64,000 nt of DNA, from the NCBI RefSeq assembly GCF_013394795.1, contig NZ_JABXYU010000001.1, forward strand, positions 1,984,001 through 2,048,000, written 5' to 3'. How positions within the stretch are numbered: position 1 is the stretch's first letter; each line of letters starts with the position of its first letter. This document shows positions 29,278 to 38,368 of this stretch, piece by piece. Below the pieces are notes generated by a model, which saw only the letters and a program-made list of their open reading frames with translations, ran no database searches and was not told the DNA's origin. The position numbers and the translations under genes were made by a program. This DNA comes from Leptotrichia sp. oral taxon 223. GTDB lineage: Bacteria > Fusobacteriota > Fusobacteriia > Fusobacteriales > Leptotrichiaceae.

Positions 29278-29306
29278 TTGACTTTTATTTAAAAATATAG
29301 TATAAA
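29278..29306 (+). promoter_or_regulatory. Promoter of the pilus/secretion operon
   Basis: TTGACT (29278-29283), a 17-base spacer and TATAAA (29301-29306), 38 bases before the major pseudopilin gene. Confidence 0.8.
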
Positions 29307-29343
29307 TTATTAAATAAAAATTAATAAAAAGAGGTGGGTAATT

Positions 29344-29793
29344 ATGGATAAGGTTTCAAAAAAAGAAAAGAGTAAAATTGAAAAAATGAAAAGAAGGGAG
29401 GAAAACAAAGGATTAAAGGATAGGGAAAAAGGGTTTACGCTCGTAGAGGTGATACTGGTAGTAGCGATTATTACCATAATATCGGCAATTGCAGTGCCAC
29501 AAGTTGGGAAGTATTTGAATAAGGCTAATAGAAGCAAGGTAATTGGAGCAGTTGCGGAACTTAATAATACTACAACTTCTTGGAGTATTGATCATGGCGG
29601 AGATGCACCTAAGAATTTACAGGATATTTTAACAGAGCATGGAAATCTCAATAAACTTGGAATTGGGCTGGACAGCAACGGGAAATTTAAGATTGGAAAT
29701 ATTGAAGGAAATGTAGTTTATCAGGATGGAGAGGTTTTTGCCAAAGTATCTGCAGGAAGCAAGGCATTTGCGGGGGAAGAAATTAGGAAATAA
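29344..29793 (+). CDS. Major (pseudo)pilin, GspG/PilA-like
   Basis: A 149-residue prepilin. The class III signal is G30|FTLVEVILVVAIITIISAIA, with Glu at mature position +5 and the usual 20-residue hydrophobic helix. The leader is 30 residues, highly charged and much longer than the usual 6-8; no later in-frame ATG with a good ribosome site shortens it except Met15. The mature protein is about 119 residues with the GspG-like NRSKVIGAVAELNN helix and no cysteine pair. It would be cut and methylated by the prepilin peptidase and polymerise into a pilus or pseudopilus. Its stop overlaps the peptidase start (TAATG). Confidence 0.88.
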   Translation: MDKVSKKEKSKIEKMKRREENKGLKDREKGFTLVEVILVVAIITIISAIAVPQVGKYLNKANRSKVIGAVAELNNTTTSWSIDHGGDAPKNLQDILTEHGNLNKLGIGLDSNGKFKIGNIEGNVVYQDGEVFAKVSAGSKAFAGEEIRK

Positions 29794-30239
29794 TGAATAT
29801 TGTGCTTGAAATTGTGAAATATTGTATTCTTTTTAGAATTATCTTGATTGATTTGAAAAAAAGGATTATTCCTGAAGAAAGTTTTGTTATTTTACTTGCA
29901 TTAGGACTAGTATTAGCAATTCAAAATACTAATTTAGAAGGGTATTATTTGGGAATTTGTGCTTATTCAATGCCGATGATAGTGCTTTATATTTTAGAAG
30001 ATTATTTTGGAAAAACGCTGATAGGCTTTGGGGATGTGAAGCTGATGATGGGAATTGGTGGAATTTTGGGATATTTTGGAGTGGACAAGGTTATAAATTT
30101 TTATATGATTTTATATATTTTTTCTGGAATAATCGCTTTTCTATTTTTATTTTTGAAAAAGTGGAAAAAGTATGAATATATCCCATTTGCACCGTTTATC
30201 ATCGGAAGTTATGTTATTTTTGAGATTTTTGGTAAATAA
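29793..30239 (+). CDS. pilD: Prepilin peptidase, short A24 form
   Basis: A 148-residue aspartic peptidase of family A24. Both catalytic aspartates are visible: D20 in LIDLKKRIIP and D81 in GFGDVKLMMG (the GxGD motif). It lacks the N-terminal Cys-rich methyltransferase domain of classical PilD/GspO, so it may cleave without methylating, like archaeal and TadV/FlaK enzymes. It is made of about five membrane segments. Translation is coupled to the pilin gene by a 1-base overlap. Confidence 0.88.
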   Translation: MNIVLEIVKYCILFRIILIDLKKRIIPEESFVILLALGLVLAIQNTNLEGYYLGICAYSMPMIVLYILEDYFGKTLIGFGDVKLMMGIGGILGYFGVDKVINFYMILYIFSGIIAFLFLFLKKWKKYEYIPFAPFIIGSYVIFEIFGK

Positions 30240-30253
30240 AAGTTGGGGAAAAT

Positions 30254-30703
30254 ATGAGAAGGAATAGGGGAGAAACGTTAATTGAAAGTTTGATTTCGAT
30301 GTTTTTTGTAACAGTTATCATTGTGCCAGTTGCAAATTTATTTTTACAGACATTTAAAACGGACATTAAAGTCGATAATTTAAATGAAAAGAATGTAAAT
30401 ATTGAAAATATGGCTGAAATATTAAAGGCAAAAAAATATAATGAAATTGTGAATTTCATTGGGAAATACGAGATTTCAAAAGTGGAAGATTTTTATAATA
30501 GATTTGCAGTTGAAAAAAAATATCAAGTTTTGAAAAATTTGAAACAAAAACGGGATAAAAAGGGCAAGTTTCAGGAAGATAAAATAAATGTGGAAATAAA
30601 GAGGACGGATGGGTATTTTGTAAATGAGTTTGGGCAGAAGGAATATATTTTTGAAATAAATATTGATAAAATAAAGGATTATTATTTTCCAAATATTAAT
30701 TAA
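30254..30703 (+). CDS. Minor pseudopilin, GspI/PilV-like
   Basis: A 149-residue prepilin-like protein: short basic leader MRRNRG, cleavage site G6|ETLIESLISM with the Glu at +5, then a hydrophobic helix to about residue 29. The mature domain is Lys-rich. The G|xTLIE(S/A) pattern and position after the major pilin suit GspI or PilV. Homology beyond the N-terminus cannot be judged. Confidence 0.78.
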   Translation: MRRNRGETLIESLISMFFVTVIIVPVANLFLQTFKTDIKVDNLNEKNVNIENMAEILKAKKYNEIVNFIGKYEISKVEDFYNRFAVEKKYQVLKNLKQKRDKKGKFQEDKINVEIKRTDGYFVNEFGQKEYIFEINIDKIKDYYFPNIN

Positions 30704-30738
30704 AATAGTTAAAAAAATAATTTGCAGGAGGAAAATAA

Positions 30739-31197
30739 ATGAAAAAAAGAGAAGGATATTTATTAGTTGAAATATTGATAAGCTTGTTTATATTTTCGGT
30801 GCTTGTATTTGTGGTTTCTGTGTTCTTGAAACGTGTAGTTATTGTGGAAAAGGCAAAGAAGGATAATCAGAAAATGTACGAGAAGATGTATTTTTCGATG
30901 GATAAAATTGTTTTGGATATAAAAAATAGAGATATTCAGGGATTTTCTTATGAGGGGGAGAATAATAACATTTTTGTTAAAGAAAATCGAATAGTATTTA
31001 AGCTGGATCAAATTTTTTATAAGCTTGAATATAATAAGGGAAAATTGTATATTTCTGATGCTGAAAATTTAAGAAAGTTTGGAAGCAGGGTTGAAGTTGG
31101 GAAATTTCGTGAGGCAAAGTTTGAGAAAGTGGGAGATTTGTTGATTATTAGGCTAAATGAGGAGAAAAACGAGAGTGTTAGAGCTATAAGAATTTAA
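30739..31197 (+). CDS. Minor pseudopilin, GspJ/PilW-like
   Basis: A 152-residue prepilin-like protein with leader MKKREG and site G6|YLLVEILISLFIFSVLVF; Glu is at +5. A beta-rich C-terminal region follows. Order in the operon fits GspJ/PilW. Ribosome site CAGGAGGAAA. Confidence 0.78.
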   Translation: MKKREGYLLVEILISLFIFSVLVFVVSVFLKRVVIVEKAKKDNQKMYEKMYFSMDKIVLDIKNRDIQGFSYEGENNNIFVKENRIVFKLDQIFYKLEYNKGKLYISDAENLRKFGSRVEVGKFREAKFEKVGDLLIIRLNEEKNESVRAIRI

Positions 31198-31213
31198 ATT
31201 GAGGTTTTGGATA

Positions 31214-31813
31214 ATGGGGAATAAATATTTTAGGTTATTGAAAAGCAGGGAACTAGATAAGGAAAATAAGAATTTTAAAAAAAGAAATGCGGGGGCAAGT
31301 CTGGTTTATGTTTTGGTAATTTTGTCGATAATTTCAGCTTTTTCGATTAATTTTGTTTATTATGTTCAGCAAAAGAAGGAAATGGTTTTTTTGAAAAGTA
31401 GCAAAGAAAATAAAATTGAGAAGAAATTTTTGACGCAGAAGGAAAATCAGAATATGGAACGGATTTTGAATAAAGGGATTTTATTTGACGGGAATACAGT
31501 TTCGCTAGATAAGAAGGAGCGGTATTTTGACAGTATTTTAAAAAAGAATGGACAGATTATTGAGATGAAAAACTTAGTTTTTTTACCAAAAGAAACTGAA
31601 AGTATAGGAAATTACAGGATAAAATCTATAAAGGACAGCAATGATAATGAATATTCCTTGCCACTTGAAGAAAATAAAGTTTATAGTGAATTGAAAGTTA
31701 TTTTTGCAAGGAAAATTTTGAATGAAGAGATATTGTTTCAGGAAAAGATAGAGTTTGGGAGATTGAGTCCGCTGGAAGTAGAAATGAGAGTTTTGGAATC
31801 AGGTTTTTTATAA
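31214..31813 (+). CDS. Minor pseudopilin, GspK/PilX-like
   Basis: A ~199-residue protein. I choose the ATG at 31214, which is spaced about 9 bases from GAGG; a TTG lies at 31199. After a charged ~28-residue leader comes NAG|ASLVYVLVILSIISAFS, a prepilin-like helix lacking Glu at +5, the hallmark of GspK/PilX tip pseudopilins. The rest is hydrophilic. No family was recognised from the C-terminal part alone; the call rests on the N-terminus and gene order. Confidence 0.68.
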   Translation: MGNKYFRLLKSRELDKENKNFKKRNAGASLVYVLVILSIISAFSINFVYYVQQKKEMVFLKSSKENKIEKKFLTQKENQNMERILNKGILFDGNTVSLDKKERYFDSILKKNGQIIEMKNLVFLPKETESIGNYRIKSIKDSNDNEYSLPLEENKVYSELKVIFARKILNEEILFQEKIEFGRLSPLEVEMRVLESGFL

Positions 31814-31865
31814 AACTGTTCAAAATGGAATATTAGAAATAAAATAAAATAATAAAGGGGGAGTG

Positions 31866-33287
31866 ATGGGAGAAAAAATAAAAATATATATAAGAAGTAA
31901 AAATAAAATTTATATATATTTTAACGAAGAAATATATTTTTTTGAAAATCAGGAACTGGAAATGGCTTTAGAGTCGTTTTTTGAGGAAAATCAGGTTGAA
32001 AAAAATATGAAAGCGGCTGTGATTTTACATTTTTCATATTTTTTATTTGGCAATTTTGGAGAAAATGTGGAAAAATCTGATAAAAAGGAAAATGATGTTG
32101 AAAATTTAGGAAAAAAATCTATAAAATTGGAAGATATTTCGGAAATTTTTAAGAAAAAGATTAGTTTTGTAAATAGAAAATTGGTTATAAATCATTTGGA
32201 AAATCAGTTTTTGGATATTTATTTGGATAAAAGGGAAATTACTAAAGTAAGGAATTGTTTAAAAAAACATCAGATGGTTATTTCGGAATTAAAAATAGAT
32301 TTTGATGCTGTCTGCAGTTATTATAGGTATGGAACTTTTGAAATTAGTCAGAATGAAAACTTTGATAAAAATTTTGAAAATAATGACGATTTTTTTGAAA
32401 ATCAAGAAAATTTTCAAAATGCGACAGGAGCTGTGGAAGGTGTTCAGGAAACAGGAATTATAAAAAATTCAAATATAGATAGAAATTTTGGTGAAATAGA
32501 GGAAATTGATATAAATGAGGAGAGTAGCGATAATTGGGGATTTTTTGACAATGATGTAAAATCAGGGAATAAAGGCGATAGAATTGAGATTTTGCAGCTT
32601 GGAGAAGAGAACAGCCTTAGAATTTTGATTGAGGATGAGAAGATTGCTGAAGTAGAAAAAATTGAGTTGAAAATTGAGGATGTAGATGATGCTGAAAACT
32701 TTGATTTTGGAGATATGACGGTTGTTGGAAGTGGAGAAAACGATGTAAAAGTTATATTTATGGGGGCAGATTTTTCAGATGGTCCTGATTTTGTAAAGAA
32801 AACAGCAATTTTTGATAAGGAGAGCGTAAAAAATGTAAAATTTTCTGATGTTATTATTGCCGGAATTTTTATTATTGCGTATTTTTTGATTTATAATTCG
32901 ATTCCACTTCAGAAAAAAACTGTGGAAAATGAAATTATTCAGAAGGAGATAAAGTTGCTGGAAAAGGATTATTTGAAAAAAAAGACCGAAGAAATACCTG
33001 ATTATTCAAAGGAACTTGCAACTCTTCGTGAAATTGACGGAGCGATAAAAAGACGGGAATATTATTCAGTTATAAAATTTTTAGTTGAAAACAGTAAAAA
33101 TGGCATTGATTATACAAAAATTAATTATGAAAATGCAAAATGGACTGTTCAAGGTGAAATGGAAAATTTTAATAATTTTGAACGATTTGAAAATAATATT
33201 TTAAAAAAGTATCCAAGTTCTGAATTGGGATATTTGAAAGATAATGATACAGCGACGGTTTTTGAGTATATTTTTGAACCGCTTTAA
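31866..33287 (+). CDS. GspL/PilN-like assembly protein
   Basis: A ~473-residue single-pass membrane protein; ATG 31866 is preferred over GTG 31863. The cytoplasmic part (~1-320) is rich in Asp, Glu, Asn and Phe, with an acidic low-complexity stretch at about 160-230. One membrane segment (VIIAGIFIIAYFLIYNSI, ~330-347) is followed by a coiled-coil and a ~110-residue periplasmic domain of ferredoxin-like size. This is the layout of GspL or of a PilM-PilN fusion. It probably links the missing assembly ATPase to the GspM/PilO-like partner encoded next. Confidence 0.65.
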   Translation: MGEKIKIYIRSKNKIYIYFNEEIYFFENQELEMALESFFEENQVEKNMKAAVILHFSYFLFGNFGENVEKSDKKENDVENLGKKSIKLEDISEIFKKKISFVNRKLVINHLENQFLDIYLDKREITKVRNCLKKHQMVISELKIDFDAVCSYYRYGTFEISQNENFDKNFENNDDFFENQENFQNATGAVEGVQETGIIKNSNIDRNFGEIEEIDINEESSDNWGFFDNDVKSGNKGDRIEILQLGEENSLRILIEDEKIAEVEKIELKIEDVDDAENFDFGDMTVVGSGENDVKVIFMGADFSDGPDFVKKTAIFDKESVKNVKFSDVIIAGIFIIAYFLIYNSIPLQKKTVENEIIQKEIKLLEKDYLKKKTEEIPDYSKELATLREIDGAIKRREYYSVIKFLVENSKNGIDYTKINYENAKWTVQGEMENFNNFERFENNILKKYPSSELGYLKDNDTATVFEYIFEPL

Positions 33288-33398
33288 ATTAATAAATATA
33301 AAAAAAATAAAATACAATTTTCGTTTTTTAAATGGAGCTTAGTATTGCAGTATGAGTAAACTTTTTTAATAGAATAAAGATATATAGGAAGAAATAGG

Positions 33399-33965
33399 AT
33401 GATAAAATTAAATTTGAAGATACTGGTGCTTGCGGCTGGGGTTATTTTTATGCTGGTGAGCACTAATAAAAAGTATGGGAAATATAAGGAAATTTTAAAT
33501 AATAGGAAAATTTTGATTGAGAATAAAAGGAATCTGGAAAGTAAGATTGTGGATGTGGTAGAAGAGAAAAATTCAGAGCGTGAAAGGATTATGGGAGAAT
33601 ATAGTCAAATATTGGCATTGACGAAAAGATTGTCGTTTTTGTCGATAAAAAATGAATCTGAATTTAAAAAGATGATTTATATATTTTCTCATGACAGTGG
33701 ACTGAAAATGAAGGAAATCTCAAAGTCGGAAAATGTCTGGGAACGGAACGGATATAGGCTTAAATATATTCATTTCACAATGTACGGGAGTTTGAATAAT
33801 TTTGGAAAGTTTATTTATTTTGTGAATAAAAGCAAAAAGTATATTGATACTTCCAAAATGTTTATAGAACTTACAAGCGATGGATTTAAAATTTCGCTTG
33901 GTTTTATAGAGAAAGTTGCGGATAAAAAGAAAATTGCTGTTGAAAATAGAGGAGAAATTGCATAA
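33399..33965 (+). CDS. GspM/PilO-like inner-membrane protein
   Basis: A 188-residue protein with a membrane segment at residues ~6-22, a coiled-coil (~30-70) and a C-terminal periplasmic domain (~80-170) with the alternating pattern of the PilO/GspM ferredoxin-like fold (LKYIHFTMYGSLNNFGKFIYF). It follows the GspL-like gene and precedes the secretin, as in gspLM-D and pilNOQ orders. No motif proves the family; topology and position do the work. Confidence 0.65.
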   Translation: MIKLNLKILVLAAGVIFMLVSTNKKYGKYKEILNNRKILIENKRNLESKIVDVVEEKNSERERIMGEYSQILALTKRLSFLSIKNESEFKKMIYIFSHDSGLKMKEISKSENVWERNGYRLKYIHFTMYGSLNNFGKFIYFVNKSKKYIDTSKMFIELTSDGFKISLGFIEKVADKKKIAVENRGEIA

Positions 33966-33995
33966 ATTTCGTATTTGAAAGGAGGGATTGTAATT

Positions 33996-35174
33996 TTGAA
34001 AAAAAAGAGAAACTGTAGGCTGCCAATTGTTTTGGTTTTGGCTTTCTGGTTTGGCTGGGGTAATATTTTTGGAGCGAAAGCGGCTGACTATGTAAACAAG
34101 AGCGATATAGAAAATGCTAAAAAAATATTTATTTATGAAGTTCCAAAGAAAGTTCAAGTTGAGAAAAAGGAAAATAGTGAAAATAAGGGAAAAAGTACCA
34201 GTAAGCAGGAGAATAAAAATAATAATCTTGGAAAAAAGAAGGAGGAAAGCAAGAATCAGGGGCAGAATCAGACGCAGCAGACTGTAAAGGAAATTAAAAA
34301 GAAAACTGGAGAAGTTGATTTGGAGTACAGGAATGTGAAGGATATTACTGAGGCGCTTAATGGCTTTTTTGGATTTGAAGTGATTGGAATTGACAATAAG
34401 GTAATTTTTAGCGGAGACGAGAGTAAAGTTGAGGAAATGAGAAGGATTATAAAGTCGCTGGATAAGGAAAAGGAGCAGGTTATAATAAAAGGGACTATAA
34501 TTGACACAAGTTCAAATCTATTTGAGCGGCTTGGAATAGACTGGAGCATAAATAGTGATAATACGAATGCGACCAAGGATAATTTAGTGGCAAAATTTTT
34601 AAATGGGGAAGTTTCGATTGCATCGATTTTTTCAAGAGGTGGCAGATTTTTAGGAATAGATTTTAACTTGCTAAAGGAAAATGGGGATATACGTATAGAA
34701 GCAATGCCAACACTTATGATTATGGAAAATGAGGAAGGGGAACTTAAAGTTACAGAGGAAGTGCTGGTTGGAGAAAAGAAGACTACAAAAAATGATACTG
34801 AATATGTGGAGCCAATTTTTTCGGAAGCTGGAATTGTATTTAGAATAAACCCTGAAATCAGGAAAATTAACGGAGTAAAGAAAATATTGCTTAAAATTGA
34901 TACAGAAATAAGTAACTTTAAGCTGACTTCAAGCTATAATGCCTCTTCTGGAGCTAAACAGAAGAATCAGACTAAGACAACAATTACATTGAATAACGGC
35001 GGCTCGACATTTATTGGAGGATTAAAGCAGGATGTGAGCAAGGAAACGGTAAGAAGGGTTCCAATTTTATCAAAAATCCCTATAATTGGGCCGTTGTTTA
35101 AGTATCGTAGGACTAATAGGGAAATGCGGGATATTTATATTGAAATTGAGGCAGTAATTCAGGATAAAATGTAA
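33996..35174 (+). CDS. gspD: Secretin (GspD/PilQ-like), compact form
   Basis: A 392-residue secretin; the start is TTG 33996, because the Shine-Dalgarno AAAGGAGGG (33978-33986) lies within the longer frame opening at 33975. It has a signal peptide ending GAKA|ADY, a Lys/Asn/Gln-rich linker (~50-110), one secretin N-domain (VDLEYRNVKDITEALNGFFG) and the secretin channel domain ending in VPILSKIPIIGPLFKYR. Family members usually have 600-800 residues and three or four N-domains, so this one is minimal. It forms the outer-membrane pore for the pilus or pseudopilus. No pilotin is seen. Confidence 0.88.
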   Translation: MKKKRNCRLPIVLVLAFWFGWGNIFGAKAADYVNKSDIENAKKIFIYEVPKKVQVEKKENSENKGKSTSKQENKNNNLGKKKEESKNQGQNQTQQTVKEIKKKTGEVDLEYRNVKDITEALNGFFGFEVIGIDNKVIFSGDESKVEEMRRIIKSLDKEKEQVIIKGTIIDTSSNLFERLGIDWSINSDNTNATKDNLVAKFLNGEVSIASIFSRGGRFLGIDFNLLKENGDIRIEAMPTLMIMENEEGELKVTEEVLVGEKKTTKNDTEYVEPIFSEAGIVFRINPEIRKINGVKKILLKIDTEISNFKLTSSYNASSGAKQKNQTKTTITLNNGGSTFIGGLKQDVSKETVRRVPILSKIPIIGPLFKYRRTNREMRDIYIEIEAVIQDKM

Positions 35175-35232
35175 CTAAAAAATGATCATTTTAAACTTTT
35201 TGCAGTTCAAATGAAAAACTTTACAAATTATA

Positions 35233-35261
35233 CTGCAAATTTCAAAAATATGTAGTATAAT
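35233..35261 (+). promoter_or_regulatory. Promoter of rfaE1
   Basis: CTGCAA (35233-35238), a 17-base spacer and TATAAT (35256-35261). Confidence 0.65.
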
Positions 35262-35336
35262 ATTGAATAAAGACTAAAATTAAAAATATAATTTAAAACA
35301 GTAAATTAATGAATTTGAATTAAGGAAAGGAAAAAG

Positions 35337-36338
35337 ATGATTTCGATTCAAAGGCTTGAAGAAATAATAAAAAAATTTAGTAGTGTGAAAATAGCTGTAA
35401 TTGGCGATATGATGTTAGACGAGTATTTAATTGGAAGAGTCAACAGAATTTCACCAGAGGCGCCTGTTCCGATTGTGAATATAGAAGAAGAGAGATTTGT
35501 ATTGGGAGGAGCTTCAAATGTAGCAAATAACTTGACTTCACTTGAAGGGAAAGTTTTCGTTTACGGAGTAATTGGAAATGATGCGAGTGGAGAGAAATTT
35601 ATAAAGGAGCTTGAGGCTAAGAATGTGAATCCTGATGGAATTGTGAAGGATGGAACACGTCCAACGATTATTAAGAGCAGAGTTTTATCGCAAGGGCAGC
35701 AGCTGCTTAGGCTGGACTGGGAAAAGGATACTGATATTTCAGAAGATATTCAGAAACAGCTTTTAGAAAATTTTGAAAAAAATATCGAAAATATTGATGC
35801 GGTATTACTTTCTGATTACAATAAAGGGCTGCTTACAAAATATTTGTCAAAAAAAATTATTGAAATAACTAAAAAACATAATAAAAAGATAATGGTTGAT
35901 CCAAAACCTCAGAATTTTAAAAATTATGCGGGAGCAACTTCAATGACTCCAAATAGAAAAGAAATTTTGGATTATTTTGGAATGAAAAAATTCACAAGTG
36001 AAGAAGAAATTGCTGAAAAAATGGCACAGTTAAAGGACGAGTTAAAACTAGACAGCGTTGTGCTTACTCGAAGTGAGGAGGGAGTTTCGTTATTTAGAAC
36101 AGAACATAAGAGGATACCGACTGTGGCAAGGGAAGTTTATGATGTTACAGGAGCTGGAGACACCTTTATATCGACATTTTTACTTTCGATATGTGCTGGA
36201 GCGGATTTGTATGAGGCCGGGGTAATTGCAAATATGGCATCTGGAATTGTAGTAGCAAAAATAGGAACGGCTACTGCAACGCAGAATGAAATACTGGAAT
36301 TTTACAAAGATAATGACAATGTGTTGAAAAATATATAA
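35337..36338 (+). CDS. rfaE1: D-glycero-beta-D-manno-heptose-7-phosphate kinase
   Basis: A 333-residue PfkB-family kinase matching the N-terminal half of HldE. It phosphorylates heptose-7-phosphate to the 1,7-bisphosphate for ADP-heptose and LPS core synthesis. Motifs: GDMMLDEYLIGRVNRISPEAPVP (start signature, given here in overview), the GGASNVANN sugar-binding block and the C-terminal anion hole DVTGAGDTFIS. It ends before the cytidylyl/adenylyltransferase domain, so RfaE2 must be separate and is not in the window. This supports an LPS-bearing cell. It follows the secretin gene by 162 bases with its own promoter. Confidence 0.93.
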   Translation: MISIQRLEEIIKKFSSVKIAVIGDMMLDEYLIGRVNRISPEAPVPIVNIEEERFVLGGASNVANNLTSLEGKVFVYGVIGNDASGEKFIKELEAKNVNPDGIVKDGTRPTIIKSRVLSQGQQLLRLDWEKDTDISEDIQKQLLENFEKNIENIDAVLLSDYNKGLLTKYLSKKIIEITKKHNKKIMVDPKPQNFKNYAGATSMTPNRKEILDYFGMKKFTSEEEIAEKMAQLKDELKLDSVVLTRSEEGVSLFRTEHKRIPTVAREVYDVTGAGDTFISTFLLSICAGADLYEAGVIANMASGIVVAKIGTATATQNEILEFYKDNDNVLKNI

Positions 36339-36397
36339 AAGCAGTTATTATTAAATTTAGTAATGTTATAAAATAAAAAAGAAAAGGAAGTGAAATT

Positions 36398-37285
36398 ATG
36401 GCAATTATTGCGGCAATTGAAGCCGGGGGAACGAAATTTATCTGTGGATTGGGGACTGAAGATGGAAAAATTATCGACAGGGTAAGTATTCCAACTGCAA
36501 CTCCTGAAGAAACAATGGCACAAGTTATTGAATACTTTAAGGATAAGCAATTTGATGTAATGGGTGTTGGGAGCTTTGGACCGATTGATCCTGTAAAAGG
36601 CTCTAAAACTTATGGATACATTACAAAAACTCCAAAGCCTTACTGGAGTGACTATAACTTAATTGGGGAATTAAAAAAACATTATGATGTTCCGATGGAA
36701 TTTGATACAGATGTAAATGGCGCAGCACTTGCAGAAAGCTGGTGGGGTGCTGGAGAAAACCTGAAAAATGTTATGTACATTACGGTAGGAACTGGAATTG
36801 GGGCTGGAGCGGTTGTTGATGGAAAAATGCTTCAAGGACTGACTCACCCTGAAATGGGACATATATTCTTGAAAAGACATAAAGATGATAAATTTGAAGG
36901 AAGATGCCCTTTTCATAAGGACTGTATGGAAGGAATGGCAGCAGGGCCTGCAATAGAGGATAGATGGGGTAAAAAAGGAATTGAACTTGCCGATAGGGAT
37001 GAAGTCTGGGATATGGAAGCATATTACTTGGCTCAGGCTGTGGTAAACTATACTTTGATTTTATCGCCACAAAAAATAATTATGGGTGGCGGAGTTATGA
37101 AGCAAAAGCAGCTTTTCCCATTAATTAGAAAATATACATTGGAATTTTTAAATGGTTATGTTCAAAAGGAAGAAATTTTAGAAAAAATTGATAATTACAT
37201 TGTTTATCCAGGACTTGGAGATGAAGCGGGATTTGTTGGTGCGATTGCATTGGGGAAAATTGCGTTGGAGAACAGCAGGAAATAA
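36398..37285 (+). CDS. scrK: ROK-family fructokinase
   Basis: A 295-residue ROK kinase. It has the phosphate loop AIEAGGTKFICG (residues 4-15), catalytic Asp in FDTDVNGAALAE, the glycine-rich TVGTGIGAGAV, and the zinc motif H..GRCPFHKDCMEG typical of the GmuE/YdhR/ScrK fructokinases. It phosphorylates fructose (perhaps mannose) to the 6-phosphate. ScrB, the sucrose-6-phosphate hydrolase that yields fructose, is encoded at 48152. It sits between rfaE1 and the GspF-like gene in one direction. Confidence 0.92.
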   Translation: MAIIAAIEAGGTKFICGLGTEDGKIIDRVSIPTATPEETMAQVIEYFKDKQFDVMGVGSFGPIDPVKGSKTYGYITKTPKPYWSDYNLIGELKKHYDVPMEFDTDVNGAALAESWWGAGENLKNVMYITVGTGIGAGAVVDGKMLQGLTHPEMGHIFLKRHKDDKFEGRCPFHKDCMEGMAAGPAIEDRWGKKGIELADRDEVWDMEAYYLAQAVVNYTLILSPQKIIMGGGVMKQKQLFPLIRKYTLEFLNGYVQKEEILEKIDNYIVYPGLGDEAGFVGAIALGKIALENSRK

Positions 37286-37324
37286 TAACTAACTAACAAT
37301 TAATCAAAGGGGGGATTAATTAAA

Positions 37325-38368
37325 ATGAGAAGTATTATACGAAATGTAGAAACCGAAATAGGAGAAAAAGACTTATTATCATTTACGAAAAGTGTATATT
37401 ATTTATTAAATGGTAAAATTTCAATAATTGACACGCTTGGAATTGTTGCACAGAATTATGACGGGGATTTGAAAAGCAAGATAATGCGTGCAAAACAGCA
37501 GATTGAAAAGGGAGTTTCTCTTCATAGGGCTTTTTCAAAGATTACTGCAAATAAGGAATTTATGGAAATGGTTAAAATTGGGGAAGAAACTGGGAATCTA
37601 GAAATTGTTTTTAAAAATCTCTATGAAAAGTATGAATTTAATCAGAGAATAAAAAAAGATATAAAAAATTTGAGCATTTATCCAGTAACAGTTATAATTA
37701 CTGCACTAGTCATTGTATTTATACTGTTAAAATTTGTTGTACCTAAATTTGTCCTGATTTATTCTGACATTGGGCAGGAATTGCCAAAAGTTACACAAAT
37801 TGTGATAAATCTCAGTAAAATAACTGATAGGTATGGGATTATTTTTTTAGCAGTTATAATTTTTTTATTTTTTATATTGAAAAAATGGAAAAGGCAGAAT
37901 GAAAAGGTTTTTGAGAAAAAAATATTGGGAACAAAAATTATTGGGAAAATGTATAAAAATATTTGCATATTAAATTTTACGAGAAATATGTATTCCCTAA
38001 CAGATGCCAATGTTCCATTGATTCAATCGCTAAAGATGTGTACAAATTCCAAAAGCAATATTTTAAATAAAGAGCTGAAAAAAATTATTTTAAAAATAGA
38101 AAAAGGGGAGAGCATTCAAAAATCCTTTAAAAATACAACTTTTTTTGACAATGAATACATAAGTTTTCTTACAATTGGAGAAAAAACCGGGGAAATGAAA
38201 ATATCATTTTTTAATTTGAATGAAATTTATTATGAAAAAGTTAGTGAAAAAATAAAATGGTTTTTGAAAATGTTTGAACCGCTTTCGATAATTTTTATTG
38301 GAGTAATTATTGGGCTTATTGTGTTTTCAGTTATGTTGCCTATTTTTAAAATGGGAGAAATGTTGTAA
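37325..38368 (+). CDS. gspF: GspF/PilC-like inner-membrane platform protein
   Basis: A 347-residue T2SF-family protein with two repeated halves. In the first, F.KSVYYLLNGKISIIDTLGI and FMEMVKIGEETGNLEIVF, then a membrane pair near 115-135 and 160-180. In the second, NFTRNMYSLTDANVPLIQSL and FLTIGEKTGEMKISF, then the C-terminal membrane segment. It is the platform of type II secretion or type IV pilus machines. It lies 2.1 kb beyond the secretin gene, separated by two sugar kinases, and is preceded by GGGGGG-type ribosome site 39 bases after scrK. Confidence 0.9.
   Translation: MRSIIRNVETEIGEKDLLSFTKSVYYLLNGKISIIDTLGIVAQNYDGDLKSKIMRAKQQIEKGVSLHRAFSKITANKEFMEMVKIGEETGNLEIVFKNLYEKYEFNQRIKKDIKNLSIYPVTVIITALVIVFILLKFVVPKFVLIYSDIGQELPKVTQIVINLSKITDRYGIIFLAVIIFLFFILKKWKRQNEKVFEKKILGTKIIGKMYKNICILNFTRNMYSLTDANVPLIQSLKMCTNSKSNILNKELKKIILKIEKGESIQKSFKNTTFFDNEYISFLTIGEKTGEMKISFFNLNEIYYEKVSEKIKWFLKMFEPLSIIFIGVIIGLIVFSVMLPIFKMGEML

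What the first reader, a model, noticed from the sequence alone, without database searches (positions are those of the whole stretch)
29278..38368. Compact type II secretion / type IV pilus-like locus without an assembly ATPase
The order pilin, peptidase, three minor pilins, GspL-, GspM- and secretin-like genes resembles gspG-(H)-IJKLM-D, but the secretin is minimal, the GspL-like protein has a long acidic linker, and GspE/PilB, PilT and GspC are absent. The platform gene lies beyond two sugar kinases. It is a streamlined machine in an organism not usually credited with one.
Basis: partly seen in the sequence, partly recalled or inferred. Interest (0 to 1): 0.5.

Follow-up and report, generated by a model that had tools for sequence, protein, structure and literature searches.

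The report
Stripped-down DNA-uptake pilus, replaced motor
The stretch encodes a pared-down version of the hair-like machine that many bacteria use to pull in DNA, and in this family of bacteria its original motor gene seems to have been lost and its job taken over by a second motor gene elsewhere in the chromosome.

Summary
The locus is real, intact and under purifying selection. It is not a machine without an ATPase: the genome holds one GspE/PilB-family ATPase, 1 Mb away, and no PilT. Among 98 Fusobacteriota genomes the locus is recognisable as the phylum's type IV pilus locus in reduced form. Its 'GspL' is a PilM-PilN fusion and its 'GspM' is PilO; PilP and the secretin's N-terminal domains are gone. 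A review reports that F. nucleatum needs PilQ and ComEC for DNA uptake; here comEC, a comEA-like gene and dprA are intact and a ComGD-like pilin gene abuts comEC, so DNA uptake is the likeliest role. The unexpected result is a motor swap. By tree, AU test and gene neighbourhood the Leptotrichiaceae ATPase is not the PilB that sits beside PilC in Fusobacterium-type genomes but a second, solo ATPase, found together with a locus-type PilB in other lineages. Fusobacterium-type genomes kept PilB and lack the solo copy; Leptotrichiaceae did the reverse. Function and motor use are inferred, not shown.

The parts
29278..29343 (+). possible promoter and leader of the pilin operon (TTGACT, 17 bases, TATAAA; AGAGG before the ATG)
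   Evidence: read by eye; the consensus scan demands T at the sixth place of the second hexamer and does not list it; only suggestive
29344..29793 (+). major pilin (PilA/GspG type), 149 aa, KG|FTLVE prepilin site
   Evidence: N_methyl 6e-8; relatives in family and f2 loci
29793..30239 (+). A24 prepilin peptidase, 148 aa, short form (the missing N-terminal half is the methylase part in PilD, recalled)
   Evidence: Peptidase_A24 2.2e-12; long forms of 239-247 aa in Sebaldella, Propionigenium and others
30254..30703 (+). minor pilin-like protein (I position)
   Evidence: N_methyl 0.012, ComGE 0.004, all below cut-off; conserved position
30739..31197 (+). minor pilin-like protein (J position)
   Evidence: ComGE 1.4e-5, ComGF 3e-4, GspJ 0.004, all below cut-off
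31199..31813 (+). minor pilin-like protein (K position), no family hit
   Evidence: conserved position; family profile hits K-position proteins of ancestral-type loci at 2e-7 to 3e-3
31863..33287 (+). PilM-PilN fusion ('GspL-like'), 474 aa, acidic linker about 150-320, one TM segment 324-342
   Evidence: hhalign to PilM 74% (positions 29-157) and PilN 92% (255-378); fold: GspL periplasmic domains Z 10-11.4, cyto-EpsL Z 8.6, PilM Z 7.5, PilN Z 6.6; model mean pLDDT only 53.8
33399..33965 (+). PilO ('GspM-like'), 188 aa
   Evidence: hhalign to stand-alone PilO 98.4%; AlphaFold pLDDT 87.6; PilO 2rjz Z 13.4, rmsd 2.0 over 89 residues, against GspM 8.3-8.5
33975..35174 (+). minimal secretin (PilQ), 399 aa: signal-like N-terminus, K/N/Q-rich linker, one Secretin_N domain, secretin core
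   Evidence: PF00263 3.1e-31, PF03958 4.3e-7; alignment A1
35337..36338 (+). heptose-7-phosphate kinase (rfaE1), syntenic anchor, not a machine part
   Evidence: TIGR02198 1.1e-115; also after the secretin in 9 of 11 Fusobacterium/Cetobacterium-type loci L081-L091
36398..37285 (+). ROK-family sugar kinase, neighbour only
   Evidence: ScrK 2.8e-95, below its cut-off
37325..38368 (+). platform protein PilC/GspF, 347 aa
   Evidence: T2SSF 3.3e-46; the only T2SSF protein found in the genome; tree

Best explanation
It is the Fusobacteriota type IV pilus locus in reduced form, most likely building a short, PilT-less competence pilus that brings DNA through the minimal secretin to ComEA/ComEC. Shown by sequence: intact conserved genes, PilM-PilN fusion, PilO, secretin, platform, one ATPase elsewhere, intact comEC, comEA-like and dprA genes, and a ComGD-like pilin gene abutting comEC. 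Inferred: that the unlinked ATPase powers it (it is the only family member found in the genome), that this ATPase replaced the ancestral PilB, that retraction needs no PilT, and that the job is DNA uptake.
For: One T2SSE-family ATPase and one T2SSF platform in a 99% complete genome. No match over the PilT cut-off in 33 of 33 Leptotrichiaceae genomes. Shared order pilin, A24 peptidase, minor pilins, L, M, secretin, rfaE with f2 genomes. L and M match PilM/PilN and PilO by hhalign; 20 control pairs at 6.7% or less; the M fold is nearest PilO. Motor swap: Leptotrichiaceae ATPases group with four solo paralogues, 98/93, unchanged without four long rows; the AU test rejects grouping with Fusobacterium/Cetobacterium-type locus PilB, p 0.004; small ORF and ATPase are neighbours in 29 of 33 family genomes and in 5 of 7 solo-ATPase genomes, with 2.1 kb between in a sixth (hand count); three f2 genomes have that neighbourhood without an ATPase. 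Platform tree: no paralogue on the Leptotrichiaceae side of a 100/97 branch. ComEC, ComEA-like and DprA intact in the own genome. A pilin gene lies 0-1 base before comEC in 8 of 8 Leptotrichiaceae comEC loci examined and 42 bases before it in G045. F. nucleatum pilQ and comEC deletions abolish DNA uptake (passages of PMC12940168 citing Sanders 2023, which I did not read).
Against: No experiment: no pili, transformation or protein contact is shown for any Leptotrichia. The C-terminal domain of the L model is nearer to T2SS GspL (Z up to 11.4) than to PilN (Z 6.6), and ATPase, platform and secretin score slightly higher with GspE/GspF/GspD than Pil models. The ComEA-like protein and the comEC-linked pilin are below the curated ComEA and ComGD cut-offs, and ComEC is below TIGR00361's. 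That pilin shows no G-[R/K]-x-[R/K] motif by eye (motif named in PMC12040237 passages). Some relatives keep the locus while ComEC has in-frame stops or DprA is missing. Several forks of the ATPase tree are open, the AU group was named after the tree was seen, and in the platform tree other Fusobacterium-type locus PilCs fall on the paralogues' side. PilT is also missing in some f2 genomes. One family member (G065) shows no ATPase, though its small ORF is missing too, so a gap is possible.
Confidence: 0.68

Rival explanations
1. A type II secretion system that exports proteins through the secretin.
For: GspL-like architecture and a C-terminal L domain nearest to GspL by fold; ATPase, platform and secretin score slightly higher with GspE/GspF/GspD than with Pil models; Sneathia amnii authors read the split genes as T2SS (PMC3535699 passages).
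Against: Loci in 12 f2/f6 genomes have separate PilM, PilN, PilO and PilP-position genes before the secretin, some with PilT beside PilB, and profiles link L and M to these; the M fold is nearest PilO (Z 13.4 against 8.5); no GspC-like ORF at the locus; the NCBIfam scores are far below their cut-offs.
Confidence: 0.1
2. A pilus for adhesion, aggregation or another surface job, with DNA uptake lost or secondary.
For: Pilus loci persist where ComEC carries in-frame stops (11 of 11 g13 genomes with a ComEC match) or DprA is not found (G094-G096); no PilT.
Against: In the own genome the DNA-uptake genes tested are intact and a pilin gene abuts comEC; PilT is not needed for Com pili (PMC6668835 passages).
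Confidence: 0.18
3. The distant ATPase has another job and the locus works with no motor, or is a relic.
For: The ATPase is not the paralogue that accompanies the locus in Fusobacterium-type genomes and sits among housekeeping genes.
Against: It is the only family member found in the genome; ATPase and locus genes show dN/dS of 0.04-0.27; secretin found in 31 of 33 family genomes by PF00263 and in a 32nd by our profile, a clear ATPase in 32 of 33.
Confidence: 0.06

Closest known systems
Fusobacterium nucleatum type IV pilus / natural competence locus (Sanders 2023 and Desvaux 2005, not read; seen as cited in passages of PMC12940168 and PMC11705814)
   Same: phylum; PilA, PilC, PilD, PilQ homologues; competence role of PilQ and ComEC
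   Different: F. nucleatum is reported to have PilB and PilT; the review calls PilM, PilO and PilP (in one passage PilN too) missing, while F. mortiferum and F. gastrosuis records read here carry a PilM-PilN-like fusion and a PilO-like gene before the secretin. F. nucleatum itself was not examined
Monoderm Com pilus (ComG)
   Same: one ATPase, no PilT, ComGD-like minor pilin, small machine
   Different: Com pili have no secretin or PilM-N-O (recalled); here the machine has both
Acinetobacter baylyi TfpB second extension motor (PMC8213720 passages)
   Same: an extension ATPase not encoded next to pilC and distinct from PilB; the authors note one Pseudomonas fluorescens strain with TfpB but no PilB
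   Different: here a family carries only the second motor; the TfpB model scores below GspE and PilB
Sneathia amnii 'T2SS' (PMC3535699 passages)
   Same: platform and GspD in one locus, GspE homologue in another
   Different: authors saw no pilin genes and read it as T2SS

Membership tests
type IVa pilus | secretin, platform, class III pilins, A24 peptidase | tested here: met
   the peptidase is the short form
type IVa pilus | PilM, PilN, PilO alignment complex | tested here: met
   as PilM-PilN fusion plus PilO; the fold of L alone does not tell it from GspL
type IVa pilus | PilP | tested here: inconclusive
   no ORF at the locus between PilO and secretin, while 12 other loci have a gene in that place; rest of the genome not searched
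type IVa pilus | PilT (mandatory in the initial Denise 2019 model, PMC6668835 passages) | tested here: not met
type IVa pilus | locus-type extension ATPase PilB | tested here: not met
   only a paralogue is present
type II secretion system | GspC | tested here: inconclusive
   no candidate at the locus; genome not searched for it
type II secretion system | GspM nearer to known GspM than to PilO | tested here: not met
   PilO Z 13.4, GspM 8.3-8.5
type II secretion system | GspL fold | tested here: met
   shared with PilM-PilN fusion, so not discriminating
type II secretion system | secretion of exoproteins | not testable with these tools
   needs mutants
monoderm Com pilus | no secretin (recalled) | tested here: not met
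   secretin present
natural transformation system | intact ComEC, ComEA, DprA genes | tested here: met
   DprA passes its NCBIfam cut-off, ComEC passes PF03772 and TIGR00360, the ComEA-like protein passes only HHH_3
natural transformation system | pilus-dependent DNA uptake | not testable with these tools
   needs mutants

The most novel reading that the evidence does not exclude
A whole bacterial family (Leptotrichiaceae) has swapped the motor of its competence pilus: the ancestral PilB beside PilC was lost and a second, chromosomally unlinked ATPase, which in other Fusobacteriota occurs alongside a locus-type PilB, now drives both extension and, without PilT, retraction on the old platform.
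Probability: 0.6. Interest if true: 0.7.

Novelty: new variant of a known kind. Interest (0 to 1): 0.55.

Why it matters
It makes a testable case of how interchangeable the motor of a type IV pilus is: related machines work with PilB in Fusobacterium-type genomes and apparently with a second motor in Leptotrichiaceae. It suggests that PilM and PilO, reported missing in F. nucleatum, may be unrecognised rather than absent. It offers a graded series of secretins (about 600 to 246 aa) for asking how little a working outer-membrane gate needs, and it predicts transformability in Leptotrichia, for which I saw no report in the listings.

Tried and rejected
No-ATPase machine: rejected. Relic: rejected by conservation and dN/dS. 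T2SS by model names: the ranking of GspE/GspF/GspD over Pil models was not trusted because the scores lie far below the curated cut-offs; of two f2 locus PilBs tested, one ranks GspE first and one PilB first, and both solo ATPases tested rank GspE first. The GspL model is poor (mean pLDDT 53.8), so only its C-terminal domain has weight, and that domain is nearest GspL. In the profile comparison one unplanned pair rang, Fusobacterium L against M at 67%, which fits the known likeness of PilN and PilO (recalled). In the fold search for M, Amuc_1100 (Z 10.4) ranks between PilO and GspM. The promoter scan (67 found, 48.4 expected) and terminator scan (4 found, 1.8 expected) are not used. PMC535925 and PMC4793230, seen as passages, did not bear on the question.

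Literature limits: searches listed papers that hold both Leptotrichia and the second term (22 and 14 papers); I judged these from the listing and opened none of them except those named elsewhere. The library holds open-licence papers only.

Rows dropped or chosen: dN/dS used 8 of 12 same-genus relatives for the locus (left out: L036, with short ORFs for the I gene and platform, and L037, L039, L040, more diverged or interrupted) and 9 of 12 for the ATPase. The comEC neighbour count rests on the 8 best-scoring comEC loci plus the own genome, not on a random sample. The adjacency of ATPase and small ORF was counted by hand. For tree rows from stretches L147-L166 and L173-L192 the longest ORF was taken without a profile check. 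The platform tree flags 16 rows of odd composition and long branches.
Full report
What is there. The window carries eight neighbouring + strand genes from 29344 to 35174 (pilin, A24 peptidase, three pilin-like genes, GspL-like, GspM-like, secretin), then two sugar kinases and a platform gene ending at 38368. Gaps between neighbours run from -1 to 162 bases.

The missing ATPase. A search of the own genome (2.58 Mb, 99.3% complete) with PF00437 scored all 29 candidates and found one match, E 4e-103, 405 aa, 1 Mb away, after glmU, prs, sua5 and a small ORF and before two rnf-like genes on the other strand (gene names recalled from sequence). There is one T2SSF protein, the one in the window. No match in 33 of 33 Leptotrichiaceae genomes passes the PilT cut-off, while 39 of 98 Fusobacteriota genomes have one that does and six more match at 1e-83 or better. 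PilT loss is not unique to the family: g13 and some other f2 genomes, two of them 99% complete (G023, G030), have none over the cut-off either. The list of weaker matches was cut, so for relatives this rests on the cut-off. So the locus lacks an ATPase, the genome does not, and no PilT was found in the own genome.

What kind of machine. PF00263 matches in 90 of 98 genomes of the phylum and T2SSE in 96 of 98. In f2 genomes of the Fusobacterium/Cetobacterium kind the locus reads PilB, PilC, pilin, A24 peptidase, minor pilins, L, M, secretin, with rfaE after it in 9 of 11 loci L081-L091; in Leptotrichiaceae the same core without PilB, and with the platform behind the kinases in Leptotrichia or directly after the secretin in g2, g10 and g11. 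In 12 genomes (G041-G046, G054, G055, G056, G058, G060, G097) the L position holds separate genes: PilM (PF11104 8e-16 in G044), PilN (PF05137 1.5e-5 in G044), a PilO-like gene and a PilP-position gene, then a longer secretin. Profile-profile comparison ties these together: Leptotrichiaceae L against PilM 74% and PilN 92%, M against PilO 98.4%; Fusobacterium-type L against PilM 95% and PilN 98.6%, M against PilO 99.4%; 20 control pairs gave at most 6.7%; the one unplanned hit, Fusobacterium-type L against M, was 67%. The AlphaFold model of the M protein (pLDDT 87.6) aligns best with PilO (Z 13.4, rmsd 2.0, 89 residues), then Amuc_1100 (10.4), then GspM of T2SS (8.3-8.5). The L model is weak; its C-terminal domain is nearest GspL domains (Z 10-11.4) and less near PilN (6.6), its N-terminal part nearest cyto-EpsL (8.6) and PilM (7.5). 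GspL is itself the PilM-PilN counterpart (recalled), so fold does not decide for L; synteny and profiles do. The locus is therefore read as a reduced type IV pilus locus in which a GspL-like fusion arose within the phylum. It is not filed as a canonical type IVa pilus, because PilT and locus PilB were tested and not met.

Reduction series. Secretins run from about 560-600 aa in loci with separate PilM and PilN, through 516-566 aa in most Fusobacterium-type loci, to about 400 aa in Leptotrichia, 310-333 aa in g10, g11 (Streptobacillus notomytis L121) and G065, and 246 aa in G082, which PF00263 had missed. The long forms carry an N-terminal region with weak, sub-cut-off matches to STN/FecR_C and carboxypeptidase-regulatory domains, absent from Leptotrichiaceae in alignment A1. 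The peptidase is short (about 135-172 aa) in Leptotrichia and Fusobacterium-type loci and long (239-247 aa) in Sebaldella and the loci with separate PilM and PilN.

The motor swap. A tree of 67 ATPases with two PilT rows puts all 24 Leptotrichiaceae rows (100/100) beside four solo ATPases from G063, G064, G041 and G046 (98/93), not beside the PilB of the Fusobacterium/Cetobacterium-type loci. Leaving out the PilT rows and two long rows gives the same 98/93. Holding Leptotrichiaceae with the 19 Fusobacterium/Cetobacterium-type locus PilBs costs 30.8 log units, p-AU 0.004; the group was named after the tree was seen. The solo ATPase occurs, at 67-73% identity to that of G063, in seven genomes. 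In G041, G063 and G064 a locus-type PilB is present as well, and in G045 a fragment stands beside a platform gene; in G040, G046 and G047 no second PilB was found, but there the pilus locus is missing or cut in the assembly. Neighbourhood is independent evidence. A small ORF of about 150 aa occurs in 94 of 98 genomes. By hand count the ATPase lies within about 120 bases of it in 29 of 33 Leptotrichiaceae; it is 2.3 kb away in G083, elsewhere in G082, undetermined in G089 (contig end), and both are missing in G065. Of the seven solo-ATPase genomes, it is directly beside the small ORF in G040, G041, G045, G047 and G064, 2.1 kb away in G063, and the small ORF was not found in G046. The whole run glmU, prs, sua5, small ORF, ATPase was seen in the own genome, G040, G041 and G047 and, with two genes inserted, in G083. 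In three f2 genomes looked at (G020, G031, G009) glmU, prs, sua5 and the small ORF stand without an ATPase, and one search finds one PilB-type match in each of these, at the pilus locus. The platform tree has Leptotrichiaceae with the locus PilC of g16, g12 and g13 on one side of a 100/97 branch with no paralogue there; other Fusobacterium-type locus PilCs fall on the other side with the paralogues, and many rows have long branches or odd composition. The simplest reading is at least two ancestral motors, of which each family kept a different one, with the old platform retained. A precedent for unlinked second motors is TfpB of Acinetobacter baylyi, and that paper notes one Pseudomonas strain with TfpB but no PilB (passages of PMC8213720).

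Function. In F. nucleatum, deletion of pilQ or comEC abolishes DNA uptake (PMC12940168 passages citing Sanders 2023). The own genome has ComEC of 537 aa (PF03772 3e-53), a 193 aa protein of ComEA type (HHH_3 4e-11; N-terminal membrane segment by eye) and DprA (TIGR00732 4e-64). A pilin gene whose best model is ComGD (3e-10, below its cut-off; FimT/GspH type) ends at the base before comEC starts. The same pair, 0-1 base apart, stands in all 8 Leptotrichiaceae comEC loci examined, and 42 bases apart in G045. This could fill the GspH/FimT place missing from the main locus and links pilus and ComEC. Retraction without PilT is described for other systems (passages of PMC6668835). DNA uptake is the best inference; relatives with interrupted ComEC but a kept pilus locus (g13) warn that other uses are possible.

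Selection. dN/dS against 8 relatives is 0.04-0.11 for the pilin, 0.07-0.12 for the secretin, 0.08-0.16 for platform and PilO, 0.10-0.27 for the other locus genes, and 0.04-0.10 for the ATPase against 9 relatives. One congener (G077) has its secretin cut by a TnpB-type element, so loss is possible at species level.

Novelty. Parts were known: the F. nucleatum locus, and the split PilC/GspD and GspE loci of Sneathia amnii, read there as a T2SS with no pilins. I saw no report of a Leptotrichia pilus or transformation, of the PilM-PilN fusion in this phylum, or of a motor replacement, in the listings of all ten paper searches, which cover open-licence papers only; most listed papers were not opened.

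Noticed in passing
G004-G014 (genus g13): ComEC carries in-frame stops in 11 of 11 genomes with a match and no PilT passes the cut-off, yet PilB, platform and secretin frames are open in the three loci read (L081, L086, L090); the PilO frame was not seen in L081.
   Followed up: partly
L193:7618-8358 (G082): A 246 aa secretin-like protein in an otherwise recognisable locus, too divergent for PF00263.
   Followed up: partly
L137, L138 (G049, G050): PilB, pilin, peptidase and secretin sit together with no minor pilins or PilMNO beside them.
   Followed up: no
L040:6225-7472 (G077): A TnpB gene (NF040570 2e-60) lies between two pieces of the secretin gene in one Leptotrichia genome.
   Followed up: partly
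L002:8595-9068 and 94 of 98 genomes: A conserved Fusobacteriota protein of about 150 aa with a GKGKRK stretch and no Pfam family over its cut-off, next to sua5 and the solo ATPase.
   Followed up: partly
L127, L128, L129, L131, L136, L093: Three genes, one of them an ABC-type ATP-binding protein by eye and two membrane proteins, stand between PilC and the pilin.
   Followed up: no
L036 / L102 (L. hongkongensis): The I-position pilin ORF is only 68 aa and the platform ORF 297 aa; frameshift or sequencing error.
   Followed up: no
G065: Secretin, pilin and platform kept but no clear ATPase, DprA or small ORF found in a genome given as 99% complete; gap or a real relic.
   Followed up: no
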